From NCBI RefSeq assembly GCF_000744115.1, contig NZ_JQLG01000004.1, positions 1,427,001 to 1,491,000 on the forward strand: a stretch of DNA of 64,000 bases. The letters run 5' to 3'. The position numbers and the translations under genes are program-made. The first letter of the stretch is position 1. Each line of letters starts with the position of its first letter. Source of the DNA: Carnobacterium alterfunditum DSM 5972. GTDB lineage: Bacteria > Bacillota > Bacilli > Lactobacillales > Carnobacteriaceae. Below, piece by piece: positions 46,241 through 55,673 of the stretch. The notes beneath the pieces were generated by a model, which saw only the letters and a list, made by a program, of their open reading frames with translations, made no database searches and was not told where the DNA came from.

Positions 46241-46604
46241 GGGGGCGTTACGGAATCGACAGGTATAGGTCGAGCTTGGATCGCGTTTCGTAGGTTACGG
46301 CTACGTAAAAACGTTACAGTTAAATACAACTGATAAAAACAATAATAACTCTTACGCTTTAGCTGCGTAATAACAGCTTAGTGTAGATCCTCTCGGCATC
46401 GCCCATGTGCTCGAGCAAGGGTCCTATAATAAGTGGGATACGCTAAAACTTTCCGTCTGTAAGTTTTAGAAGAGATCATCAGACTAGCGACGTATGATGC
46501 CTGTTGTGCGGCTAATACTGAGCGAAACCTTAATAGCATAACTATGAACGTAGACGTCTAGGTGCCGATATATTTGGACAGGGGTTCGACTCCCCTCGCT
46601 TCCA
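46241..46604 (+). ncRNA. ssrA: Transfer-messenger RNA
   Basis: The 5' end GGGGGCGTTACGGAATCGAC and 3' end GGGGTTCGACTCCCCTCGCT... form the tRNA-like domain; acceptor GGGGGCG pairs with CGCTTCC, discriminator A, CCA not encoded. The tag reading frame is 46332-46370: GAT AAA AAC AAT AAT AAC TCT ... TAA, encoding DKNNNNSYALAA. With the tmRNA-borne alanine this gives a tag ending in the protease signal ALAA. The last 13 bases of the gene lie inside the attachment core of the element that follows; the integrated end preserves the mature sequence. Confidence 0.96.
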
Positions 46605-46606
46605 TC
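46592..46606 (+). other. attL core
   Basis: CCCCTCGCTTCCATC, spanning the last bases of ssrA; repeated exactly at 55659-55673. Confidence 0.85.
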
Positions 46607-46608
46607 TT

Positions 46609-46662
46609 GCTGAATAAAGTCATTTCAACTAACGTTGTTATGGCGGTATATCAGCTTTTTTT
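46609..46662 (+). terminator. Element-supplied ssrA terminator
   Basis: GCTGAATA ... TATATCAGC stem (one bulged base) followed by T7, immediately inside the element. It appears to replace the native terminator displaced to 55688. Confidence 0.6.
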
Positions 46663-46701
46663 ATTGCTTTTTTTCTAATAGATAACAAACAATATCATTC
46701 A

Positions 46702-46725
46702 AGGGGTAGTCAAAGGGGTAGTCAA
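46702..46725 (+). repeat. Tandem 12-bp repeat, probable integrase arm sites (left)
   Basis: AGGGGTAGTCAA twice in tandem. The same pair (second unit AAGGGTAGTCAA) occurs at 55552-55575 in the same orientation, about 100 bases from each att core. Confidence 0.65.
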
Positions 46726-46759
46726 TTTATTATAAAAAACTAATAAGCATAACGTGGGT

Positions 46760-46785
46760 GTCTATTGTTTTTCGATAGGCTTTTT
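46760..46785 (+). terminator. Weak hairpin terminator in the element's left end
   Basis: GTCTAT / ATAGGC with a 9-base loop then T5. Could act in series with the terminator at 46609. Confidence 0.4.
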
Positions 46786-46824
46786 ATTTTGTCTATTTTG
46801 TAGGGTGTGTGTACTGATCTTAGA

Positions 46825-46856
46825 GAAAAAAAGAACCATCACAATTAAGTAATGGT
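46825..46856 (-). terminator. Minus-strand terminator at the end of the satellite operon
   Basis: On the minus strand: ACCATTAC / GTGATGGT stem followed by TCTTTTTTT. It would stop leftward satellite transcription before it runs antisense into ssrA. Confidence 0.6.
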
Positions 46857-46872
46857 AGAGGAGGTTTTTAAT

Positions 46873-46923
46873 ATGAACAAAAGAGCGAACACATACATAG
46901 CAACCGAGCGACTAAGTCACTAA
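46873..46923 (+). CDS. Possible 16-codon small ORF
   Basis: An excellent ribosome site AGAGGAGG lies 8 bases ahead of an ATG that opens MNKRANTYIATERLSH, then TAA. No similarity is recognised. It may be a leader peptide, a small toxin-like or regulatory peptide, or a vestige of a longer gene. The strong ribosome site is the only reason to list it. Confidence 0.3.
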   Translation: MNKRANTYIATERLSH

Positions 46924-47835
46924 ATTTGAAAGAATTACTTTATAAAATAATCATGTCTTTATACCCTCATTATACCATGAGTAGCAGTGTTTGTAAACGA
47001 TAAAGCGAACTATTAAATCATTTTTTTAAATATCGTTCGTGTTTAAACGCGCGTTTTTCAAAGGTTTTCAGCAATACTAAGACATTGCAAAAGGTTGCTG
47101 TATAAGGGTTTTGCCCATTTTACAAAAGTCGTCATAAAAGGCTATTTTTTCGCGGAAAGCCTATATGTGTTCTATCAAGGTATACCAATCAAGTTTAAAG
47201 ACTGGGGTATCAATGTTATTTAGGTATACCAATCATTTAGGTGGATTGATTTTATGCTTATGATTTGCTGAAAGATAGCAGGTGAAATGTCTAATAAATT
47301 ATTACAAATAACTCTGATAATATATTTCTGGTATTCCTACATACATTCCACTGTTGTTATCATATATCATATGCTGTTACTACTCAATAGACATTAGTCA
47401 AAGCAAGGTAGTGAACAGTACTCCATCTTGTTCAGCATTGTCATATGTAATCAGTATGATCCTTATATCCTGTTGTATCTATTCAAGATAAGAAGCGAAC
47501 CCACGACAAAGTATGTTAGTATTATCAATCTATTATCAATCTGTTAAAGAATCCAAACAAGCAATGGTTCAATGTTGAATAGATACTACATGATCTAGCT
47601 TACGTGTGTGCGTGTGTTGGTATTAAGGTATGTATCAAGTGACCTATTCTTGCAGGTATAGTGCTGAATGGTTAGTGGTATTAAGTAGTCGTATCAGCTT
47701 GCTACATTAGGATAATCGTTGGTATATCAGTGTTATCTCTTAATGTCGTTGTCTCTCATGAACGTTTTAAGCTCATTTCAAAAGAGTAGATGAACAAGTA
47801 TGTGTGAATTGATCTGTGATATCTCCTAAGAGTTC
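46924..47835. other. Non-coding left arm of the satellite
   Basis: No convincing coding frame on either strand across about 900 bases. It contains a hairpin with AACGA/TCGTT-type arms near 47010-47040, the palindrome AAACGCGCGTTT near 47046, the iteron-like GGTATACC repeats at 47178-47235, a tandem TTATCAATCT repeat near 47522, and several scattered GGTAT motifs up to 47740. It may hold a cis-acting site (packaging, replication or transfer) or a decayed cargo gene. Confidence 0.5.
47178..47235 (+). repeat. Iteron-like repeats AGGTATACCAATCA
   Basis: Exact 14-base copies at 47178-47191 and 47222-47235, 44 bases apart (two 22-base periods), with a degenerate unit GGGTATCAATG between. GGTATACC is itself palindromic. 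Confidence 0.55.
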
Positions 47836-48210
47836 TTAAATAATAAATATAAGTAGTAATAGCAGTATGCCGACTACAAATACAAGACACCCTAATCCAA
47901 GCATGCTATTTGCAATGCTGTTTGTTGATTTAGAAACATTTCCAAGAGATTTACCACCTTTTTCTAGTGCGTCGCCAATTCGATAGATAGTGCTATTCTT
48001 TTTACCGTTCTCAATATACCAGTGCTTATAACTCTTCATTGTTCTGTGAGTAGGATCTACTGTATATCCTTCATGTTCTAAAAAAACTGCTACTTCTTCA
48101 CCATAAATTATTTCTTTTTCACACTGTTTACATTTTGCTTCACCTCTAACTTGACCACCACAGTTGGAACAATTGACGTCCTCTAACTTTAGTTTTTGTC
48201 CGTATTCCAT
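47836..48210 (-). CDS. Zinc-ribbon protein with C-terminal membrane anchor (satellite accessory gene)
   Basis: 124 residues. An N-terminal zinc ribbon has two CxxC knuckles (NCSNCGG near residue 14; CKQCEKE near 27). A middle part follows with HRTMKSYKHWYIENGKK, and a C-terminal hydrophobic anchor LVFVVGILLLLLIFII reaches the end. AAGGAGGG precedes the ATG. It is the last gene of the leftward operon, at the att-distal position where satellites often carry cargo. I do not recognise the family. A role in host-phage interference is a guess from position and topology. Confidence 0.65.
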   Translation of the reverse strand: MEYGQKLKLEDVNCSNCGGQVRGEAKCKQCEKEIIYGEEVAVFLEHEGYTVDPTHRTMKSYKHWYIENGKKNSTIYRIGDALEKGGKSLGNVSKSTNSIANSMLGLGCLVFVVGILLLLLIFII

Positions 48211-48284
48211 TTAAAACCCTCCTTATACTTTCCATTTTAATGATAGTCTAAAAATGTTATAAATTGCAAGCGTTATCCTAAAGA

Positions 48285-48317
48285 CAAAAAACTACCACTG
48301 CATTAAGCAATGATAGT
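48285..48317 (-). terminator. Terminator after the capsid gene
   Basis: Minus strand: ACTATCATTGC / GCAGTGGTAGT stem with a 5-base loop, then T6. It separates the capsid gene from the zinc-ribbon gene, which may therefore have its own promoter. Confidence 0.75.
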
Positions 48318-48340
48318 CTATTGTCAATTATTCAATATTC

Positions 48341-49591
48341 TTATTTGATACCGTCCACGATCACAAAGGCTTCATCATGAATAGTTGTAGCGTCTGCACG
48401 TAAGTAACCTCGGAAGTCTACTGCAAGATGATTGAAAGCATTGTCCGTTGTACGTGATACTTCGATAATAATTTCAGTTCTCATACCTACAAGTAATTGT
48501 GTCATATCTCCTACAAGTGCAAAGGATAGGTTTGTTGTATCTCCTAAGTTGTTAGGGATTTGAGTTGTAGTCATTTTGTTAGGGATTTTAATGTAACTTG
48601 GTAACGGTTGAATAGGTTGTCCTAAAGTATCTACAAACATATCTAGTTTACCTGCAATAGAAGGATTGAATACAATTGCATTAGGTTCATGATTTTTACC
48701 TTGAATCTTAGTAATAGCTTGTGAGAATGGAACATAATTTGCAATATCTCCACCTTCAATTTTTTCAATGCCTTCAATGTTGTAAATTCCTAATAAATTA
48801 GGATCAACGCCATTCCCTGTTAATACTTGACGGTCAAGCTCTAACGCAAGACTAGCACTAAGTGATTCAATTACTTGTTGATCTAGTCCAGAAGCGTCCT
48901 CTAGTAACTCAACGGAAGCTGTTCCAGAAGCTACAATAGTTTTTGCTTCAAGATTTACTGGTTCAAATGTTGCATTAGATTTTACGATTTCATCTAATTC
49001 GAGTTTAGAGTGAGAAGTAAAGTCACTAACTTGTTTAGCGATTGTCAAAGTTCGGCTATTCATTGGGATCATGCTTGCTAGTTGCATGACAACTGATTTA
49101 GCACGTACTGTTTGAATGATCTTTTCTGATAACTCTTTAGGAATCATCACTTGACCGTTACTGATATTGTTAGAAGCTGCTACACGTTGTTCTGTACCTG
49201 CTCCACTCCAGTTACCTGTTGATAGTCCACGTATCATTTTAGCAAAGGAGAAGTCTTTCAATTCTTCGTCTCGGTTGTTTACTCGGTATTCTTGGTTAGG
49301 TGCTAAAACTCTGTGTTGCACCCCTTTTATATCTTCAATAATTTTTGTCATGTCATCTGCTCCATTTCTATTTTCTGTATTTTCAAGTACTAGTACTGGA
49401 TTTTCTGTATAATTGACAAGTTTGTCTGTTGCTTTGTCTACTTGCTCACGTATTTCTTTAATTCTGTTAGATGATTCTCGCATTTGTTTGATATTCTTTT
49501 CATATTTATAACGATCAAATTTCAATACTTCTTCCTCTAAACTTTCTTTCGATTCTCTTACTTCACGTTTTAACCAGTCTACTGCTGCCAT
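48341..49591 (-). CDS. HK97-family phage major capsid protein
   Basis: About 416 residues (423 if the upstream ATG at 49612 is used). A charged coiled-coil N-terminus of about 120 residues is the delta/scaffolding domain. It is followed by the HK97 fold: QVMIPKELSEKIIQTVRAKS, VMQLASMIPMNSRT, LELDRQVLTGNG, NAIVFNPSIAGKL and a C-terminal end with VDFRGYLRADATTIHDEAF. The ATG at 49591 is preferred because it lies after the upstream gene's stop, though spacing to AAGGGA is a little long. In complete phages it is flanked by portal and protease genes; neither is here. It may build satellite capsids or interfere with helper assembly. Confidence 0.85.
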   Translation of the reverse strand: MAAVDWLKREVRESKESLEEEVLKFDRYKYEKNIKQMRESSNRIKEIREQVDKATDKLVNYTENPVLVLENTENRNGADDMTKIIEDIKGVQHRVLAPNQEYRVNNRDEELKDFSFAKMIRGLSTGNWSGAGTEQRVAASNNISNGQVMIPKELSEKIIQTVRAKSVVMQLASMIPMNSRTLTIAKQVSDFTSHSKLELDEIVKSNATFEPVNLEAKTIVASGTASVELLEDASGLDQQVIESLSASLALELDRQVLTGNGVDPNLLGIYNIEGIEKIEGGDIANYVPFSQAITKIQGKNHEPNAIVFNPSIAGKLDMFVDTLGQPIQPLPSYIKIPNKMTTTQIPNNLGDTTNLSFALVGDMTQLLVGMRTEIIIEVSRTTDNAFNHLAVDFRGYLRADATTIHDEAFVIVDGIK

Positions 49592-49598
49592 AATTTTT

Positions 49599-49991
49599 TT
49601 AATTCCCTTCATTTTCCATTATTTTTTTTAGTTGTTTTGTTGCTTTGACAAGTTTTTCTGTAAATGCTAGTTCGGTCATATTATTCAATGTTGCCACTTT
49701 ACTAAGTAAGGGGAGTTGAGTTTCATATAAACAACCACCAATCCTACTATTAGCTATATAGTAGCTTTCAAGAATCAAGTATGAAATTCTACTCCTATAT
49801 TTTAATATCTTTAAAGATTTTAGCAGTTGTTTTTTGCCCTCTGCTCCATTAAGTCTATCGTATGTAAAGTTTTTAAAATATAACCATTTTTTGAGTAGAA
49901 GATTTGTTTGCTTTAACTTAATATCAGAACCTTCTTGCTTACGTCCAACACGTGTTAAATAAATAGGCTTTTGCTCTTTTTCATATGTCAT
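49599..49991 (-). CDS. Small basic protein of unknown function (satellite)
   Basis: 130 residues (134 from a GTG at 50003). It is Lys/Leu-rich and predicted helical (KLKQTNLLLKKWLYFKNFTY; LLKSLKILKYRSRISYLILE), with no recognised domain. Its stop overlaps the alternative capsid start, so the two genes are translationally linked. In other satellites this slot can hold packaging or capsid-remodelling proteins; nothing in the sequence proves that here. Confidence 0.6.
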   Translation of the reverse strand: MTYEKEQKPIYLTRVGRKQEGSDIKLKQTNLLLKKWLYFKNFTYDRLNGAEGKKQLLKSLKILKYRSRISYLILESYYIANSRIGGCLYETQLPLLSKVATLNNMTELAFTEKLVKATKQLKKIMENEGN

Positions 49992-50017
49992 TTGAATACT
50001 CACTTTCTTATTTTTCG

Positions 50018-50284
50018 GGTAGTTTGGTAGTTATCTTAACTACCCGGGTAGTTATCTAAAACGGCTGTAACCCTTGGGAGAGTAAGGCAGGTAGTTTAGT
50101 AGTTAAGTTTTGCCAAATCATATTATAATATATATTATTTTTTATTATTTTTTCTATAAAGATTATTAAAAAGATAGCTACTTAACTACTCACGTCCTTC
50201 AATCCCTTGGTATGACTGGTTTATTTCGGGTAGTTATCTAGGTAGTTATCTGTTTTAGATAACTACTTAACTACCTGCTCATTA
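50018..50284. other. Candidate satellite replication origin
   Basis: Clusters of the unit GTAGTTA(TCT) flank an A/T-rich stretch. Left cluster (50018-50107): GGGTAGTTTGGTAGTTATC, the perfect palindrome TAACTACCCGGGTAGTTA at 50037-50054, and GGTAGTTTAGTAGTTAAG. Core 50117-50170 is almost pure A/T. Right cluster (50173-50284): GCTACTTAACTACTC, then GGGTAGTTATCTAGGTAGTT and the inverted AACTACTTAACTACC. It adjoins the 3' end of the primase-helicase gene, as the Rep-binding origin does in SaPI-type islands. Confidence 0.7.
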
Positions 50285-52805
50285 ATTGTTCCTTTTCTTT
50301 CCTCAATGCCTTCAATTCTCGTTCGTTGTCGTCTTTATTTAATACCTTAAAATTAGAACGTCCGCTCATTATTGAAGTGTTAGTTGTTTCCATTTCGTTG
50401 ATTTTGCTATCAAGTTTTTCAATATCAATTTGTGTCTCGTTATCATGGTTCACATAACATGTTTTTCTAGCTTTCTTATATGTCTCATCAAAAGCTATTC
50501 CATCATCTAAGAACACATATTCTTCTCGGTCATTATCTTCTTTTAGGAAGTAATCTAAAACGGATATCGCTGTTTGTCCTGTATGGCTCCAATCGTCTGT
50601 TTTCTCAATAAATTGGTTCAATCTTGTAACAAACATGCGTTGTGATAGCTTACTAGGTTTGCCAACTTCTTGCGACCATTTCACAAAATACTTGTAAACA
50701 AAATCTACTCTCAAACGTCCGCTCTTAAATGTTGAAAATACGTTTTCAAAGAAATCTGCAACAATATCATTTTCTAAGGTAAATTCACGCATTAGGTTTT
50801 CGGAAGCTTTTGGTTGAATGAATAGTGTGAAATCTTCAATTTGTAAAGCACACTGCATTATCCAACTTAGAATTTCTGGATCACGTGCATATTCACTTTT
50901 TATTTTTGGGTTGCCTTTACTACCTTTGTAGCTGTTTACAAATGGAACCATCAACATTCTTCTCTTGAAAGCGTCTGTTATATCTGATGTTCGCAAGTGT
51001 CCGTTTACTGATTGAACGACAAGGGGTGTACCTTGATATTTGAACCGTTTTAGTCCTTTAGGGTTTACACTGAACATATCGCCTGTAACGAGCGATTTTA
51101 GCACTCTAGGTTCATCTACAAAGCTTGAAGTGTCATTGTCATCGCCAATCACAATCTGGGCAGTTTCGATTCCTTCGGTCTGATGGTTTTGTTGCATTTC
51201 TTTAACAGTCAAGGGGAGGATATTGTCCTTTCCTACCAAAGAAGAAATAAATTCTTGGAAGGTTCCTTTTCCTGATCGCCCCATACCGCTATCACGTAAC
51301 AGTACAAATTGTTCTCTATTTTTCAATTGAATACTAGCACGAACAATCTGCCATAAAAGTGATTCGAGTTCTTTGTCATCGTTCGACCATTCTTGAAGCA
51401 TGTTGCTGAAAGTCCAACCATCACGCATAGGCTCGCTATCCATTTGAATGTAATTTGTATCAATTTTTGAAGTGAAAACAATTTCTGGATTATATGATTC
51501 TAACTCCATTGTTTCAAAGTTAAACAAACCGTTTCCAACACATATATAGTCACTACCTGCATATTTTTGTTTTATTTCAGATTCGTTTTTTAGATGGAAC
51601 ATGACGTTTTTCGCTAGTCTTTCAGTCAATGTATTTTCTACCCACGAGATAATTTTGAAGAAATAAGATTCTGTTGCTGTATAGATTCCTTCGTCTACTA
51701 AAAACATACTCACTGGATTTTCAATATTTCCAACAATTACAAAATCGAGATAGTCTTGAAGCACGTGTGCGACTTCTAAAGGCGTCAGTCTCGGTTTTTT
51801 AGTTTCAGCGTTATCTCTCTTACCCTGTGAGTACTCACGATCCGCACGTTCTTGGTTACCACGTTCAGTTAATTTGTGTTTTAGTTCTTCAAGAGTATTT
51901 ACATCTTGTTTTTGAACCTGCTTATTGTTATTGAAAAATTCTTTGAAAGAAACATTCAATCTACTGATAGCTTTATCTCTTTTGAAGTGTTCAATATTTT
52001 GATGTTGCCATTCTTGATTGTCACCTGCTAAAATTTGGATACATGTTTCTGCAATGTTCTCGGATATTTCCGCCACCTGTAAAGCATGTTTGACACACAT
52101 ATATGGTTTAAGGTAGTTATCCCTTTCTTGAAGCCACACTTCATTTCGAGTTGCATATTCAACTACAAGATCAATAGCTTCTTTATCCTCAATGTTAGTA
52201 AATGAATATTGTTTATTTTGGTTAGTTGTTTCTTTAATCGCAGTGACTTGTAAAAGTGCGTCAATTGGATAAGATTTTCCTTGATTGACAATGATATTAC
52301 TTTTATAATCATCTAAAGAACCATTGACGATTACTGGTAAACCCATATGCTGTGAATAGGTTTTTGAAGCTGTATCGCAAGGAAAAATACCAATCGTATC
52401 AATCATTGATTGAATAAGAGCCTCGTTCTCATTCTCAACATAGTTCCTTGACGGTTCAACGATCATTCTTAGTCTTGTATTATCGCTAGTATTTGATATA
52501 GTAGGATATATAAGATAGTTGTAAGAACCTAGCTTTTCTTTAACCACCTGCATAAACTCTACAATTGGTAGGGTTACCTTGTCGTAGTCCAATACGATCA
52601 AGGATTTATAAGATAAATTTTCGTTGGAACGTGTACTATTTTTTAGGTCGCCACTTAGAAAATACTTTGCGTTCTTTTTCTTTAGGGTTTCTTTATCTCC
52701 ACTCAAGATATCGGGTTCGTATTGAACCAAGTATTCAAAATCACTTAACAGTGTTTCAACTCGTGTGTATTTTTCGCTTCTTACGCCTGTTGTCAAATTT
52801 ATCAA
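50271..52805 (-). CDS. Primase/SF3 helicase replication protein (phage P4/D5-type)
   Basis: 844 residues. The N-terminal part resembles a primase-polymerase module, with the acidic motif LIVLDYDKV near residue 70 and TISNTSDNTRLRMIVEPSR. A D5-type middle domain follows (about 340-480). The superfamily 3 helicase has Walker A GMGRSGKGTF near 507, Walker B IVIGDDND near 551 and arginine-rich DAFKRRMLMVPF. The start is a TTG with a weak GAAAGAAG site. It would unwind and prime the element's DNA at the adjacent iterons. Replication protein plus origin suggests an inducible replicating satellite. Confidence 0.88.
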   Translation of the reverse strand: MINLTTGVRSEKYTRVETLLSDFEYLVQYEPDILSGDKETLKKKNAKYFLSGDLKNSTRSNENLSYKSLIVLDYDKVTLPIVEFMQVVKEKLGSYNYLIYPTISNTSDNTRLRMIVEPSRNYVENENEALIQSMIDTIGIFPCDTASKTYSQHMGLPVIVNGSLDDYKSNIIVNQGKSYPIDALLQVTAIKETTNQNKQYSFTNIEDKEAIDLVVEYATRNEVWLQERDNYLKPYMCVKHALQVAEISENIAETCIQILAGDNQEWQHQNIEHFKRDKAISRLNVSFKEFFNNNKQVQKQDVNTLEELKHKLTERGNQERADREYSQGKRDNAETKKPRLTPLEVAHVLQDYLDFVIVGNIENPVSMFLVDEGIYTATESYFFKIISWVENTLTERLAKNVMFHLKNESEIKQKYAGSDYICVGNGLFNFETMELESYNPEIVFTSKIDTNYIQMDSEPMRDGWTFSNMLQEWSNDDKELESLLWQIVRASIQLKNREQFVLLRDSGMGRSGKGTFQEFISSLVGKDNILPLTVKEMQQNHQTEGIETAQIVIGDDNDTSSFVDEPRVLKSLVTGDMFSVNPKGLKRFKYQGTPLVVQSVNGHLRTSDITDAFKRRMLMVPFVNSYKGSKGNPKIKSEYARDPEILSWIMQCALQIEDFTLFIQPKASENLMREFTLENDIVADFFENVFSTFKSGRLRVDFVYKYFVKWSQEVGKPSKLSQRMFVTRLNQFIEKTDDWSHTGQTAISVLDYFLKEDNDREEYVFLDDGIAFDETYKKARKTCYVNHDNETQIDIEKLDSKINEMETTNTSIMSGRSNFKVLNKDDNERELKALRKEKEQLMSR

Positions 52806-52900
52806 TTGAAGTCACTTCTTTCAAATTTAGTAGCCTTCACACATTTATACACATATCACATAGTCCTCCTCAAGACAGCGTAACGAGCATATCATTTTCA

Positions 52901-53206
52901 TTATGCTTCTAATTCTTCTAGCGGTGTATCGTCAATTTTTTCTAATAAAGAAAAATAGTTATCAAATGGATATGTTGGTTTTTCCTCTAAAACGTTCAAA
53001 ATCCGAATAACTTCCTCGGTTAAGTCGTCTAAAATCTGATATGAATCATCACTCAATGATTCAGTGGCATCATTCATAAAGTTTGTTAAATCTGCACAAA
53101 CATTTTGAAGATCTAAAGTTTCTTTTCTCAATGCTGTTACAATTTCATTCGTTTGCCCTGCTAGTTCTTGAATAATTTCATCTTTTTCGTTAGCTGTTTT
53201 GTTCAT
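52901..53206 (-). CDS. Acidic coiled protein of unknown function (satellite)
   Basis: 101 residues, very acidic, mostly helical (ELAGQTNEIVTALRKETLDL; LTEEVIRILNVLEEK). No catalytic motif. GGGAG precedes the ATG. It lies between the HTH gene and the replication gene in the leftward operon, where satellites often encode small regulatory or interference proteins. Family not recognised. Confidence 0.6.
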   Translation of the reverse strand: MNKTANEKDEIIQELAGQTNEIVTALRKETLDLQNVCADLTNFMNDATESLSDDSYQILDDLTEEVIRILNVLEEKPTYPFDNYFSLLEKIDDTPLEELEA

Positions 53207-53273
53207 GTTAAAAATCTCCCGTCATATTTTTATTTTTTGTTCTACCCAAGCAACGGACTTCCACGTACCGCTT

Positions 53274-53549
53274 TTATATTTTGTGATCCTGTAAGAATTT
53301 CTCTGCGTCTCTCATATCTATCATTGTTATTTGTTCAACATGGATTACCTTTAATCCTTTGGTTAGCCATTTAGCTAAAGTTCCATATGAGATTCCAATT
53401 TCTTCACAAAAATCTTTTTTCTTAAAATATCTTTTACCACCTTTGTTTTTGCTTTCTTCGGCTACATTTCCAAGCATTGTTTCTAAAAATTTGGCGATTT
53501 GTTCTTGAATTTCTTTCGAGAAAAGACCAAATGTTTGTTGTTCCATCAT
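53274..53549 (-). CDS. Small HTH protein, excisionase/AlpA-like
   Basis: 91 residues. The C-terminal half is a winged-helix DNA-binding motif of MerR/excisionase type: KKKDFCEEIGISYGTLAKWL, then IDMRDAEKFLQDHKI. AAGGAGG lies 6 bases ahead of ATGATG. First gene of the leftward operon, directly opposite the repressor. Likely directs excision or activates the operon; either would fit. Confidence 0.65.
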   Translation of the reverse strand: MMEQQTFGLFSKEIQEQIAKFLETMLGNVAEESKNKGGKRYFKKKDFCEEIGISYGTLAKWLTKGLKVIHVEQITMIDMRDAEKFLQDHKI

Positions 53550-53575
53550 TTTTTTACCTCCTTAATGGTTCGTTT

Positions 53576-53630
53576 GTACCTTTTTTAACTGGTATATACA
53601 TAGTATAAGGTACATACGTTACTTTGTCTA
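53576..53630 (-). promoter_or_regulatory. Leftward satellite promoter with inverted-repeat operator
   Basis: Minus strand: -35 TAGACA (53625-53630), 17-base spacer, -10 TATACT (53602-53607). Half-sites GTACCTT (53576-53582) and AAGGTAC (53607-53613) form a perfect 7-base inverted repeat; one touches the -10, the other covers the expected start. This fits repression by the divergent XRE protein. Confidence 0.6.
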
Positions 53631-53727
53631 CCTGAAAAATTCGATAAATGGGCTTATTTGATAAGTTTTTTTATATTTTCACTGATATATAGGCTTATTT
53701 AATGTTTTTAAGAGTGGAAAGGTTCAT

Positions 53728-53756
53728 TTGTTCTCTTTTTTATGATATATTATATA
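53728..53756 (+). promoter_or_regulatory. Probable repressor promoter
   Basis: TTGTTC, 17 bases, TATATA, 32 bases ahead of the repressor start. Upstream GGCTTATTT occurs twice (53651, 53692). Confidence 0.4.
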
Positions 53757-53787
53757 TGATAATTAACTAAAAGGAGGGGTGAGTGAA

Positions 53788-54186
53788 GTGTTGATAGGTG
53801 AAATGATTAAACAACTAAGGATAGAAAAAGGTTTGAAACAAAAAGAACTAGCTGAAGTAGTTGATATTTCTAGAGAGAGTATAGGTAACTACGAGCGAGG
53901 TACTAGAGCACCTAGTGCTGAAATAGCAAGCAGGATAGCAAATGCATTAGATGTTCCTGTTGGTGTTTTAATAGGGGAAGATGCAGATGTTATATTTTCA
54001 AAATTAATTGAACTAAATGATGGATTAGAAAATGGCTTTTCCTTAAATTATGATCCCATAGACAAGCATGAACAAACCTTGTTACGATCTGTAATTGATT
54101 ATATGAAGCAAAGTAAACAAAGAGAAATGGAAAAGTATTATCAGGGATTAGAACAAGGTAGAAAAGACAACACTGACAAGCCCTAA
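53788..54186 (+). CDS. XRE-family repressor (Stl/CI-like)
   Basis: 132 residues. The N-terminal HTH (IKQLRIEKGLKQKELAEVVD, then SRESIGNYERGTRAPS) is a classic lambda-repressor fold; the short C-terminal part (PIDKHEQTLLRSVIDYMKQS) lacks a LexA/CI peptidase motif. A self-cleaving SOS response is therefore unlikely, and derepression by a helper-phage protein, as with SaPI Stl, is plausible. The GTG at 53788 lies 8 bases after AAGGAGGGG; a GTG at 53779 overlaps that site. Confidence 0.8.
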   Translation: MLIGEMIKQLRIEKGLKQKELAEVVDISRESIGNYERGTRAPSAEIASRIANALDVPVGVLIGEDADVIFSKLIELNDGLENGFSLNYDPIDKHEQTLLRSVIDYMKQSKQREMEKYYQGLEQGRKDNTDKP

Positions 54187-54397
54187 ACAGTGCTTACAGC
54201 ACTCTCAAAGGCTTCAACCAATCTACAACATACTTTTACTTTATATAGAAGAAACATTGTCATAGGCTCTTGAATAACCACCTAAAACATTGTTTACAAT
54301 AAGCAGGGTAACGATATATAATAGGCAAATAGTTACTTAAATACCTTATAGCCCCAAGCAAAAACTTCCACGTTATGCTTCAAAAGGGGAAACAATA

Positions 54398-55549
54398 ATG
54401 GCAAATATTAAAAAGTATATTAAAAAAGATGGTTCTACGGCATATGAATTTAGTTTGTATCTAGGCATGGATCACGTTACTGGTAAAAAGCGTAGAACGA
54501 CAAGGCGAGGTTTTACGTCCTTAAAGGGTGCTAAAACTGCTATGAATAGACTGCAATACAAGGTACAAGAGAACGGGTTTAAGAAGCAAAAGAGTTATAC
54601 CTATAATGAAATCTATCTGTTATGGATTGAGCAGTATAAAAACACTGTCAAAGAAAGTACGCTGCAAAAGACAACTAAGCTATTTGAACATCATATTTTG
54701 CCCTTATTTAGTGATTTAAGGATAGATAAGGTAGACACTGCATATTGTCAAAAGGGTATAAACAAGTGGTTCAAAAAAGGCTTAACAAGCTATAAGATAC
54801 TACTTCGATACACTTCAAAAGTCTTTAAAATGGCGGTCAATATGAACATTATTGAAACAGATCCTACTGCAAAAGTAACGGTTCCTGTTAAAAGAGAAAA
54901 TGAAGTTATTGAAAAGTTACCTCGATTTTACGATAAGGAAGAACTGGAACAATTCTTTTCTTCACTTGCAAAAGAGGGTAACAAAAAAAACCTAGCACTT
55001 TTTAGGGCGTTAGCCTTTAGTGGTGCTAGGATAGGCGAGATTTTAGCCCTTGAATGGCGTGACATAGACTTTAACGCAAGTACCTTATCAGTCAACAAGA
55101 CGCTTACAAGGGGCTTGAACAATCGCTTAATGGTAGACGTTCCCAAAACTAGAAAGTCAATTCGTGTGATAAGTTTAGATCCTATCACTATGCAGGTTTT
55201 GAGAGTATGGAAATTAGAACAAGCTGAAAGCTATTTCAAATTAGGGTTCAATACTGGTAGGATCAAGCAACCTGTGTTTACAAACAGTAAAAATGCTTAT
55301 ATAAACAGCTCCAAAATTTATAGAGATTACAGCAGAGTAGTGAAAAAGTATGACCTTAAGAAAATCAACATACATGGCTTTAGGCACACACATTGCAGTT
55401 TATTATTTGAAGCAGGTGCGAGCTTGAAAGAAGTACAAGACAGATTAGGTCATACAGACGTTCAAACTACTATGAATATCTACGCTCACGTAACGAAAAG
55501 AGCTAAAGATGAGACAGCTTCTAAGTTTGCGGATCATGTCGGTTTTTAA
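54398..55549 (+). CDS. int: Site-specific tyrosine integrase
   Basis: 383 residues. N-terminal arm-binding domain (IKKYIKKDGSTAYEFSLYLG; RRTTRRGFTSLKGAKTA), SAM-like core domain and catalytic domain with Arg in FSGARIGEILALEW (near 211), HGFRHTH (near 330), LGHTDVQTT and Tyr in MNIYAHVTK. AAAAGGGGA precedes the ATG. The gene ends next to paired 12-base repeats and 110 bases from attR, the normal layout. It integrates into ssrA. The 210 bases before it show a small hairpin (CAGTGCTTACAGCACTC) but no gene. Confidence 0.95.
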   Translation: MANIKKYIKKDGSTAYEFSLYLGMDHVTGKKRRTTRRGFTSLKGAKTAMNRLQYKVQENGFKKQKSYTYNEIYLLWIEQYKNTVKESTLQKTTKLFEHHILPLFSDLRIDKVDTAYCQKGINKWFKKGLTSYKILLRYTSKVFKMAVNMNIIETDPTAKVTVPVKRENEVIEKLPRFYDKEELEQFFSSLAKEGNKKNLALFRALAFSGARIGEILALEWRDIDFNASTLSVNKTLTRGLNNRLMVDVPKTRKSIRVISLDPITMQVLRVWKLEQAESYFKLGFNTGRIKQPVFTNSKNAYINSSKIYRDYSRVVKKYDLKKINIHGFRHTHCSLLFEAGASLKEVQDRLGHTDVQTTMNIYAHVTKRAKDETASKFADHVGF

Positions 55550-55551
55550 TT

Positions 55552-55575
55552 AGGGGTAGTCAAAAGGGTAGTCAA
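55552..55575 (+). repeat. Tandem 12-bp repeat, probable integrase arm sites (right)
   Basis: AGGGGTAGTCAA then AAGGGTAGTCAA, beginning just after the integrase stop. Same unit and orientation as at 46702-46725. Confidence 0.65.
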
Positions 55576-55658
55576 TGCAGAAATGAATACAGCAAAAAGG
55601 TTGTGAAACGTTGATTTAAAGGCGTTTATAAGGTGTCTACTGCTATTTAGCATAGAAA

Positions 55659-55673
55659 CCCCTCGCTTCCATC
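55659..55673 (+). other. attR core
   Basis: CCCCTCGCTTCCATC, identical to 46592-46606. The sequence downstream (GAGTCAAACTAAATAAG) is chromosomal. Confidence 0.85.

What the first reader, a model, noticed from the sequence alone, without database searches (positions are those of the whole stretch)
46592..55673. Minimal ssrA-integrated phage satellite that carries its own capsid gene
Seen: integrase, XRE repressor without peptidase domain, divergent HTH protein, primase-SF3 helicase, iteron cluster and an HK97-type capsid protein in only ~9.1 kb, with exact 15-bp att repeats and intact frames. Known: SaPI/PICI satellites share int-repressor-divergent xis/rep-ori order; capsid-forming PICIs encode capsid plus portal, protease and connectors. 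Here the capsid gene stands alone, without terminase, portal, protease or tail genes. Inference: a satellite type that either builds capsids with helper parts or uses the protein to redirect or poison helper assembly. Best candidate in the window for an undescribed system.
Basis: partly seen in the sequence, partly recalled or inferred. Interest (0 to 1): 0.85.

Follow-up and report, generated by a model that had tools for sequence, protein, structure and literature searches.

The report
Phage satellite with one capsid gene
A 9-kilobase DNA parasite of phages sits in a bacterial chromosome and carries a single phage-shell gene; relatives in other bacteria carry the same kind of shell gene, and several also carry what looks like a phage's DNA-packaging signal, which suggests that they bring their own shell and borrow the rest of the virus particle.

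Summary
In detail: an intact 9.07-kb element in ssrA with exact 15-bp att repeats, integrase, HTH-only repressor, divergent HTH gene, D5 primase-helicase, iterons and one HK97-type capsid gene; no terminase or portal was found. It is not a deletion product: five other Lactobacillales elements have the same order. In those five the capsid gene is fused to a ClpP protease; its shell domain is 88-97% identical among them, under strong purifying selection, and the best conserved part in 4 of 5 pairs compared (a tie with the helicase in the fifth). All five carry, 92-227 nt behind the gene, a site that phage contigs carry between HNH endonuclease and terminase genes: a probable cos site, so a helper's terminase most likely packages them. 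Their shells are not close to the capsid proteins of the likely helpers. The same capsid family occurs on C. difficile plasmid pCD630, whose capsid N-terminus and HNH segment match local phages. Most likely these satellites supply a small shell and borrow portal, terminase and tail; a Ccm-like mixed capsid is the main rival. For the window copy neither cos site nor helper was found. Lone capsid genes in satellites are known (SaPIbov5 Ccm): a new variant of a known kind.

The parts
46241..46604 (+). tmRNA gene ssrA, integration target, kept intact
   Evidence: ARAGORN
46592..46606 (.). attL core CCCCTCGCTTCCATC
   Evidence: exact 15-bp repeat
46702..46726 (+). arm-like repeat at the left end
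   Evidence: D1; paired repeats at both ends of four relatives (L009, L011, L012, L014)
46607..47835 (.). about 1.2 kb with no convincing gene; holds short inverted near-copies of the start regions of the 101-aa and primase genes
47836..48210 (-). 124-aa protein, weak zinc-ribbon hits below cut-off; a hydrophobic C-terminal stretch seen by eye; accessory gene position
48341..49612 (-). HK97-type capsid protein, 423 aa: N-terminal delta-like region of about 120 residues (named by position) and a shell domain, no protease
49599..50003 (-). 134-aa protein of unknown function overlapping the capsid start (GTG start)
50013..50274 (.). iteron cluster (GGTAGTT words), likely replication origin 3' of the primase-helicase gene
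50271..52805 (-). primase / D5-type SF3 helicase, 844 aa (TTG start)
52901..53206 (-). 101-aa protein of unknown function
53274..53549 (-). 91-aa HTH protein, xis/regulator-like
   Evidence: matches in L009, L011 and L014
53779..54186 (+). XRE repressor, HTH only (135 aa)
54398..55549 (+). tyrosine integrase, 383 aa
55552..55576 (+). arm-like repeat at the right end
   Evidence: D1
55659..55673 (.). attR core

Best explanation
It is a phage satellite of PICI-like layout belonging to a family whose one virion gene is a capsid shell protein. Inferred cycle: a helper phage relieves the HTH-only repressor; integrase and the divergent HTH protein excise the element from ssrA; the primase-helicase replicates it from the iterons; the element's shell protein assembles a small head suited to about 9 kb, using its variable N-terminal region to fit the helper's portal (and, in this copy, the helper's protease); the helper's terminase fills it, and helper connectors and tail finish the particle. 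Shown by sequence: family membership, intact genes, no terminase or portal found, conservation of the shell, a probable helper cos site in five of five relatives. Inferred: induction, self-built shell, portal recruitment, and all of this for the window copy.
For: Five relatives with the same order; repeats give 8.4-9.1 kb, with a second choice of 11.2 kb for L014. Identity, L009 vs L011: shell 89%, ClpP 73, integrase 68, helicase 58, delta-like region 48, repressor 38, primase 26; L013 vs L014: shell 89, helicase 56, integrase 35; the shell is highest in 4 of the 5 pairs compared and level with the helicase (89) in L009 vs L014. dN/dS of the shell 0.02-0.05 in the 8 of 10 pairs where dS could be computed, 6 of the 8 with dS above 1. 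Four loci from other classes of the phylum with this capsid gene near an integrase and a primase or helicase gene. Pfam confirms HNH, TerL, portal, ClpP and capsid genes around the site in L207, HNH and TerL in L187, TerL in L099. 5 of 105 genomes of the Enterococcus family carry the stricter pattern outside a satellite, all 5 with an HNH motif upstream. pCD630 has the same capsid family with a phage-like N-terminus and an HNH segment of a C. difficile phage. Satellite shells lie far from the likely helpers' capsid proteins in both trees.
Against: No cos-like site in the window element by profile or by comparison with two prophages of its genus; no phage-record match of its left 3.7 kb, and only short weak matches in 18 genomes of its family (best E 3e-4 outside its own). 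No second PF05065 and no PF04860 match in the host, so the helper is unknown. The N-terminal region of this copy matches no phage or prophage convincingly, nor do those of L009 and L011 in 14 and 22 genomes of their genera outside satellites; the phage-matched N-terminus is seen only in C. difficile. To phage CD2301 the pCD630 protein aligns at 29% over 393 columns, so its shell is divergent, not unrelated. The capsid clade is not purely lone-capsid: L227 (terminase and portal beside the gene) and L228 (a long frame that I take for a tape measure by eye, no Pfam match) fall in or at the base of it. L013's capsid frame stops about 12 codons early. No structure could be predicted.
Confidence: 0.58

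Rival explanations
1. Ccm-like redirection: the satellite protein enters a mixed capsid with the helper's own major capsid protein and shrinks it, as SaPIbov5 Ccm does by filling the pentamers.
For: Direct precedent: Ccm is a lone capsid homologue, 23% identical to the helper protein, and the only SaPI protein needed (PMC8569155, PMC6893505 passages). The window copy has no protease, like Ccm. In pCD630 the N-terminus resembles that of local phages' capsid proteins.
Against: Five of five close relatives fuse their own ClpP protease to the shell, which a minor guest subunit would not obviously need; the shell is the best conserved part in 4 of 5 pairs although primases and integrases change, as expected of self-contacts.
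Confidence: 0.28
2. The protein is an interference or decoy factor that jams helper assembly and is not part of a satellite particle; spread is by other means.
For: No portal or terminase; helper unknown; no cos site found in the window copy.
Against: Relatives carry a probable helper cos site next to the gene; strong conservation with low dN/dS does not look like an arms-race protein.
Confidence: 0.07
3. A prophage that lost its terminase, portal and tail genes.
For: HK97 capsid and phage-type integrase and repressor; clade neighbour L227 has terminase and portal genes.
Against: The same reduced gene set in 6 Lactobacillales elements at three kinds of att site, with different primase genes; no terminase or portal seen in them.
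Confidence: 0.03
4. A host-serving compartment of encapsulin type.
For: HK97 fold alone can form shells (general knowledge).
Against: The gene sits in a mobile element with integrase, repressor, primase and iterons; relatives fuse a phage-type ClpP protease and carry a probable cos site.
Confidence: 0.02

Closest known systems
SaPIbov5 and its Ccm protein (cos-type SaPI)
   Same: Integrated satellite with one lone HK97-type capsid homologue and a helper cos site (here a probable one, in the relatives)
   Different: Ccm joins a mixed capsid with helper protein; here the shell family occurs in Lactobacillales and in C. difficile, is fused to ClpP in 5 of 6 Lactobacillales copies, and has not been shown to act; no Ccm-labelled chain appeared in the profile searches of solved structures (whether Ccm is in that copy was not checked)
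Capsid-forming PICI (cf-PICI)
   Same: Satellite that brings a capsid protein and probably borrows tails
   Different: cf-PICIs encode capsid, protease, portal, connectors, both terminase subunits and HNH (PMC10690885 passage); here only the capsid protein, with protease in relatives
pCD630-like plasmids of C. difficile
   Same: Same capsid family on 16 plasmid records, most of 7.7-8.3 kb; helicase; no terminase or portal seen in pCD630
   Different: Autonomous circles, no integrase annotated on pCD630; N-terminus of the capsid protein and HNH segment match Sherbrookevirus phages
PmCI172 and EcCICFT073 (Gram-negative PICIs)
   Same: Satellites with a capsid-protein homologue (PMC6092414, PMC6893505 passages)
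   Different: Gram-negative, other gene order; in EcCICFT073 deleting the capsid gene did not relieve interference
Streptococcus satellite phages (Javan set)
   Same: The 20 best of 591 phage records matched by the primase-helicase are Javan satellites (30-35% identity over 66-74%)
   Different: No match of the window's capsid protein at E 1e-5 in 50,697 phage records

Membership tests
PICI | site-specific integrase with flanking att repeats | tested here: met
PICI | master repressor divergent from the excision/replication genes | tested here: met
   HTH-only protein on +, HTH and primase genes on -
PICI | primase/replication gene with origin immediately 3' of it | tested here: met
   iterons at 50013-50274; direct repeats at the same place in 5 relatives. 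That it is an origin is inferred
PICI | carries a helper packaging signal (cos/pac) or its own TerS | tested here: inconclusive
   window: none found; relatives: probable cos in 5 of 5
PICI | induced, packaged and transferred by a helper phage | not testable with these tools
   needs lysates
cf-PICI | own portal, terminase subunits, connectors and HNH beside the capsid gene | tested here: not met
Ccm-type capsid redirector | lone HK97-type capsid homologue in a satellite | tested here: met
Ccm-type capsid redirector | joins helper capsids and changes their size | not testable with these tools
   needs particles
Ccm-type capsid redirector | sequence relation to Ccm or its helper's capsid protein | tested here: inconclusive
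   no Ccm-labelled chain among 11 and 32 profile hits; Ccm not compared directly
complete or decayed prophage | terminase, portal, tail and lysis genes present or broken | tested here: not met
   none among the 8 proteins of the element; profiles of terminase and portal silent; lysis and tail genes judged only from the Pfam/PHROG results

The most novel reading that the evidence does not exclude
Shell-only satellites are a distinct, old lineage across Bacillota: a capsid protein separate from that of their helpers, with a strongly conserved shell domain and an exchangeable N-terminal scaffold region that adapts it to whichever helper supplies portal, protease and terminase. The C. difficile reference plasmid pCD630 would be an extrachromosomal member of the same kind.
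Probability: 0.42. Interest if true: 0.82.

Novelty: new variant of a known kind. Interest (0 to 1): 0.66.

Why it matters
It would fill the gap between satellites that bend a helper's capsid and those that build the whole head. It predicts that one shell gene plus a helper's packaging signal is enough for a phage parasite, makes the role of the HK97 delta region as an adaptor testable, and gives a concrete hypothesis (phage satellite) for pCD630, which the 2019 survey counts among plasmids without any known trait (PMC6807378, passages read).

Tried and rejected
Deletion-product reading: rejected, same gene set in five relatives. A shared cos site between the window and prophages of its own genus: none. 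Matching the capsid N-terminus to phages or prophages for the window and for L009/L011: 11 of 395 genomes gave a match at E 0.01, one of them its own and the other ten at E 0.0018 or weaker, which I take as chance; nothing convincing. 'Satellite-only capsid lineage': the first tree put 12 satellite rows on one side of a branch at 99/97 against 20 phage rows, but these phage rows were chosen by hand; one search then gave 80 of 114 further IMG/VR loci, of which I looked at 14 and put 11 in a tree: L227 and L228 fell in or at the base of that group, so I dropped the exclusive claim. For one search I left out five phage rows (L030, L031, L039, L042, tp310-2); that tree also warns of long branches meeting and of an odd letter make-up in pCD630, L016, CD2301 and JD033. 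L015 (same length as pCD630), L017 and L090 (cut contigs) and L018 (weak) were not used in trees. Defence-gene hits for 9 small proteins: only two weak matches, both of the 101-aa protein. The TerL profile is weak: 1 of 5 control loci, and it missed the prophages L088 and L089; the portal profile rang in 4 of 5. The 'HNH' test is a simple motif with a background of 17 of 67. The ends of the elements in L084-L087 were not determined.
Full report
What is there. The element spans 46592-55673, in the 3' end of ssrA (tmRNA 46241-46604), between exact 15-bp repeats with a 25-nt repeat inside each end. On the + strand lie the integrase and an HTH-only repressor; on the - strand an HTH gene, a 101-aa gene, an 844-aa primase/D5 helicase, an iteron cluster, a 134-aa gene, the 423-aa capsid gene and a 124-aa gene. 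Of the 14 GGTAGTT/AACTACC words in the window, 8 are in the 267-nt iteron region. No terminase, portal or tail gene was found in the element.

The capsid gene belongs to a family. Among whole genomes the window's capsid protein matched 1 of 18 of its family and 4 of 395 of its order, its own genome counted in both; a profile matched 2 of 398 of the class and 8 of 398 of the phylum, again with its own. A scan of genome contigs gave 4 relatives, two of them the same contigs as order hits. In all, five other Lactobacillales elements were read: L009 (genome G031, of the same genus as L014's genome), L014 (Vagococcus sp. DIV0080), L011 (Enterococcus ureilyticus), L012 and L013 (Enterococcus spp.). 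Each has integrase and repressor on one strand and, divergently, HTH genes, small genes, a primase, a D5-type helicase, a gap with direct repeats, and the capsid gene. Four lie behind mnmG (named by eye from its sequence) and L013 elsewhere; repeats give 8.4-9.1 kb, and for L014 a longer repeat farther away would give 11.2 kb. In all five the capsid domain (PF05065) is the C-terminal part of a 615-633-aa protein with an N-terminal ClpP protease (PF00574, E 5e-30 or better). L013's frame ends about 12 codons before the family's usual end.

The shell is the core of the element. Between L009 and L011 identity is 89% for the shell, 73 ClpP, 68 integrase, 58 helicase, 48 for the delta-like region, 38 repressor and 26 primase; between L013 and L014 it is 89 for the shell against 56 helicase, 35 integrase and 27 primase. 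The shell is highest in 4 of the 5 pairs computed; in L009 vs L014 helicase and shell are both 89. The window's shell is 45-47% identical to the five, its integrase 38-39, helicase 23-24 and delta-like region 22-30. Shell dN/dS was 0.02-0.05 in the 8 of 10 pairs with computable dS, which exceeds 1 in 6 of the 8. A gene kept as well as or better than the replication genes is not debris.

A probable helper cos site. 92-227 nt behind the capsid gene the five relatives share a site with the core ACCGGTGNNNGGGG. A scan of IMG/VR with GGGRACCGGTGNNNGGGG stopped at 120 contigs. Of these, 38 also match in the flanks at a score of 30 or more; shuffled flanks reached 20 at most. Among the 38, an HNH motif lies upstream in 27 of 29 with enough sequence, and a frame over 500 aa downstream in 19 of 19 with enough sequence; in sites without the flank match the HNH motif appears in 17 of 67. 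Of the 10 contexts printed, L207, L188, L187 and L099 show the run HNH gene, small genes, site, a small gene in the TerS place, a terminase-sized gene, then portal-, ClpP- and capsid-sized genes. Pfam confirms HNH, TerL, portal, ClpP and capsid in L207, HNH and TerL in L187 and TerL in L099 (L207's gene in the TerS place is an HTH_3 protein). The simplest reading is that the satellites carry the cos site of HNH/ClpP-type phages and are packaged by their terminase. The window element has no such site, and a helper for it was not found.

Beyond Lactobacillales. Four loci from other classes of the phylum (L084-L087) have the capsid gene near an integrase (by blastp) and a primase or D5 helicase (Pfam for L085 and L086, by blastp for L087, only a weak zinc-ribbon match for L084), without a portal or terminase ring in the 10-20 kb read; L085 also has a head completion protein (PF05521, 1.2e-22). 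Two further hits, L088 and L089, are prophages with more distant capsid genes. The plasmid collection gave 16 records, all C. difficile. In pCD630 the first 62 residues of the capsid protein are 61% identical to that of phage JD033 over 71 columns, with no blastp alignment beyond; to phage CD2301 the alignment runs on at 29% over 393 columns. An 850-bp segment with the HNH gene is 95.6% identical to the JD033 segment upstream of its terminase, and the helicase is shared at about 66% DNA identity. IMG/VR record L016 keeps two pieces of that segment, 116 nt (87%) and 119 nt (73%), and has a separate ClpP gene 75% identical to JD033's. This looks like a satellite that has fitted a divergent shell with a local N-terminus. 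A 2024 paper (PMC10993401; section 18 read in full, other passages by search) reports particle-protected extrachromosomal elements in C. difficile, one of them 76% covered by pCD-WTSI1; that plasmid has no capsid gene in its annotation, is not among the 16 records, and shares only the helicase with the JD033 stretches compared, so it supports packaging of the plasmid family and not the role of the capsid gene.

Evolution. A tree of 32 shell domains put 12 lone-capsid proteins on one side of a branch (99/97) and 20 hand-chosen phage proteins on the other. After adding 11 IMG/VR contigs found with a wider profile (80 of 114 kept by the tool, 14 inspected), L227 and L228 joined that group (97/95). 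L227 has TerL and portal genes beside the capsid gene, on a contig cut at both ends; L228 has a long frame that looks like a tape measure to me but matched no Pfam family. So the group is mostly, not purely, lone-capsid, and the lone state is probably derived. In both trees the capsid proteins of the likely helpers (JD033, CD2301, L207, L187) and of the two prophages of the window's genus (L037, L041) lie far from the satellites (branch 84/94, where tp310-2 is with them; 100/98), so the shell was not recently taken from them.

Mechanism. A capsid protein under strong constraint, a protease fused to it in five copies, a probable helper cos site beside it and no terminase or portal together suggest that the satellite supplies the shell and the helper the portal, motor, connectors and tail. 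The delta region is the part of HK97-type capsid proteins that serves as scaffold (PMC8569155 passage); it is less conserved than protease and shell here and is phage-like in pCD630, so I propose that it adapts the shell to the helper's portal and protease. That last step is inference. The Ccm model, in which the protein enters a mixed capsid, remains open.

Known or new. Papers: PMC8569155, PMC6893505, PMC6092414, PMC12409344, PMC10690885 and PMC6807378 were read in passages by search, PMC10993401 in one full section and passages, PMC12324425 in outline and abstract, the others only as search listings. They show that satellites with a lone capsid homologue are known (Ccm, PmCI172, EcCICFT073) and that cf-PICIs encode the whole head. 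I saw no description of satellites with a ClpP-capsid fusion or of pCD630 as a satellite in the listings of the ten searches made, which cover openly licensed papers only and whose longer lists were seen in part; the paper that defines the pCD630 family (Smits 2018) is cited there and I did not try to fetch it. Hence a new variant of a known kind.

Noticed in passing
L007 (pCD630) 555-1886 and 1944-2791: The capsid protein of the C. difficile 630 plasmid has a phage-like N-terminus on a divergent shell domain, and the plasmid carries an HNH segment 95.6% identical to phage JD033: it looks like a phage satellite.
   Followed up: partly
L230, L231, L233, L235 (IMG/VR contigs of 8.9-10.4 kb, GC 63-72%): Small contigs with the same wider capsid family; Pfam finds a portal gene in L230, L233 and L235 and TerL in L233 (L231 not scanned, similar to L233); possibly minimal capsid-forming satellites of high-GC hosts.
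   Followed up: partly
window 46860-46934: A 31-nt (87%) and a 16-nt (100%) inverted copy of the start regions of the 101-aa gene (53189-53219) and of the primase gene (52816-52831) lie in the left gene-free region, as if it held a shrunken second copy.
   Followed up: partly
L009/L014 versus L011/L013, primase genes: The primase gene is poorly related between the Vagococcus-type (Prim-Pol in L009) and Enterococcus elements (26-27% identity in the pairs computed) while the shell stays 89% identical: module exchange.
   Followed up: partly
L009 10285-11850, L011 11358-12333, L013 11384-11974, L014 11506-12135: Behind the cos-like site these elements have different small genes with an N-terminal hydrophobic stretch (by eye) and no defence-library match; a cargo or exclusion position.
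   Followed up: partly
G007:C6 (26,382 bases): A short query matched six times at a spacing of about 5,090 bases along this contig, which looks like a concatemer of one small replicon.
   Followed up: no
L039 1483-2982 (G031 prophage): A 499-aa protein beside a portal gene, with the PF05065 match in its C-terminal part, looks like another protease-capsid fusion in an ordinary prophage.
   Followed up: no
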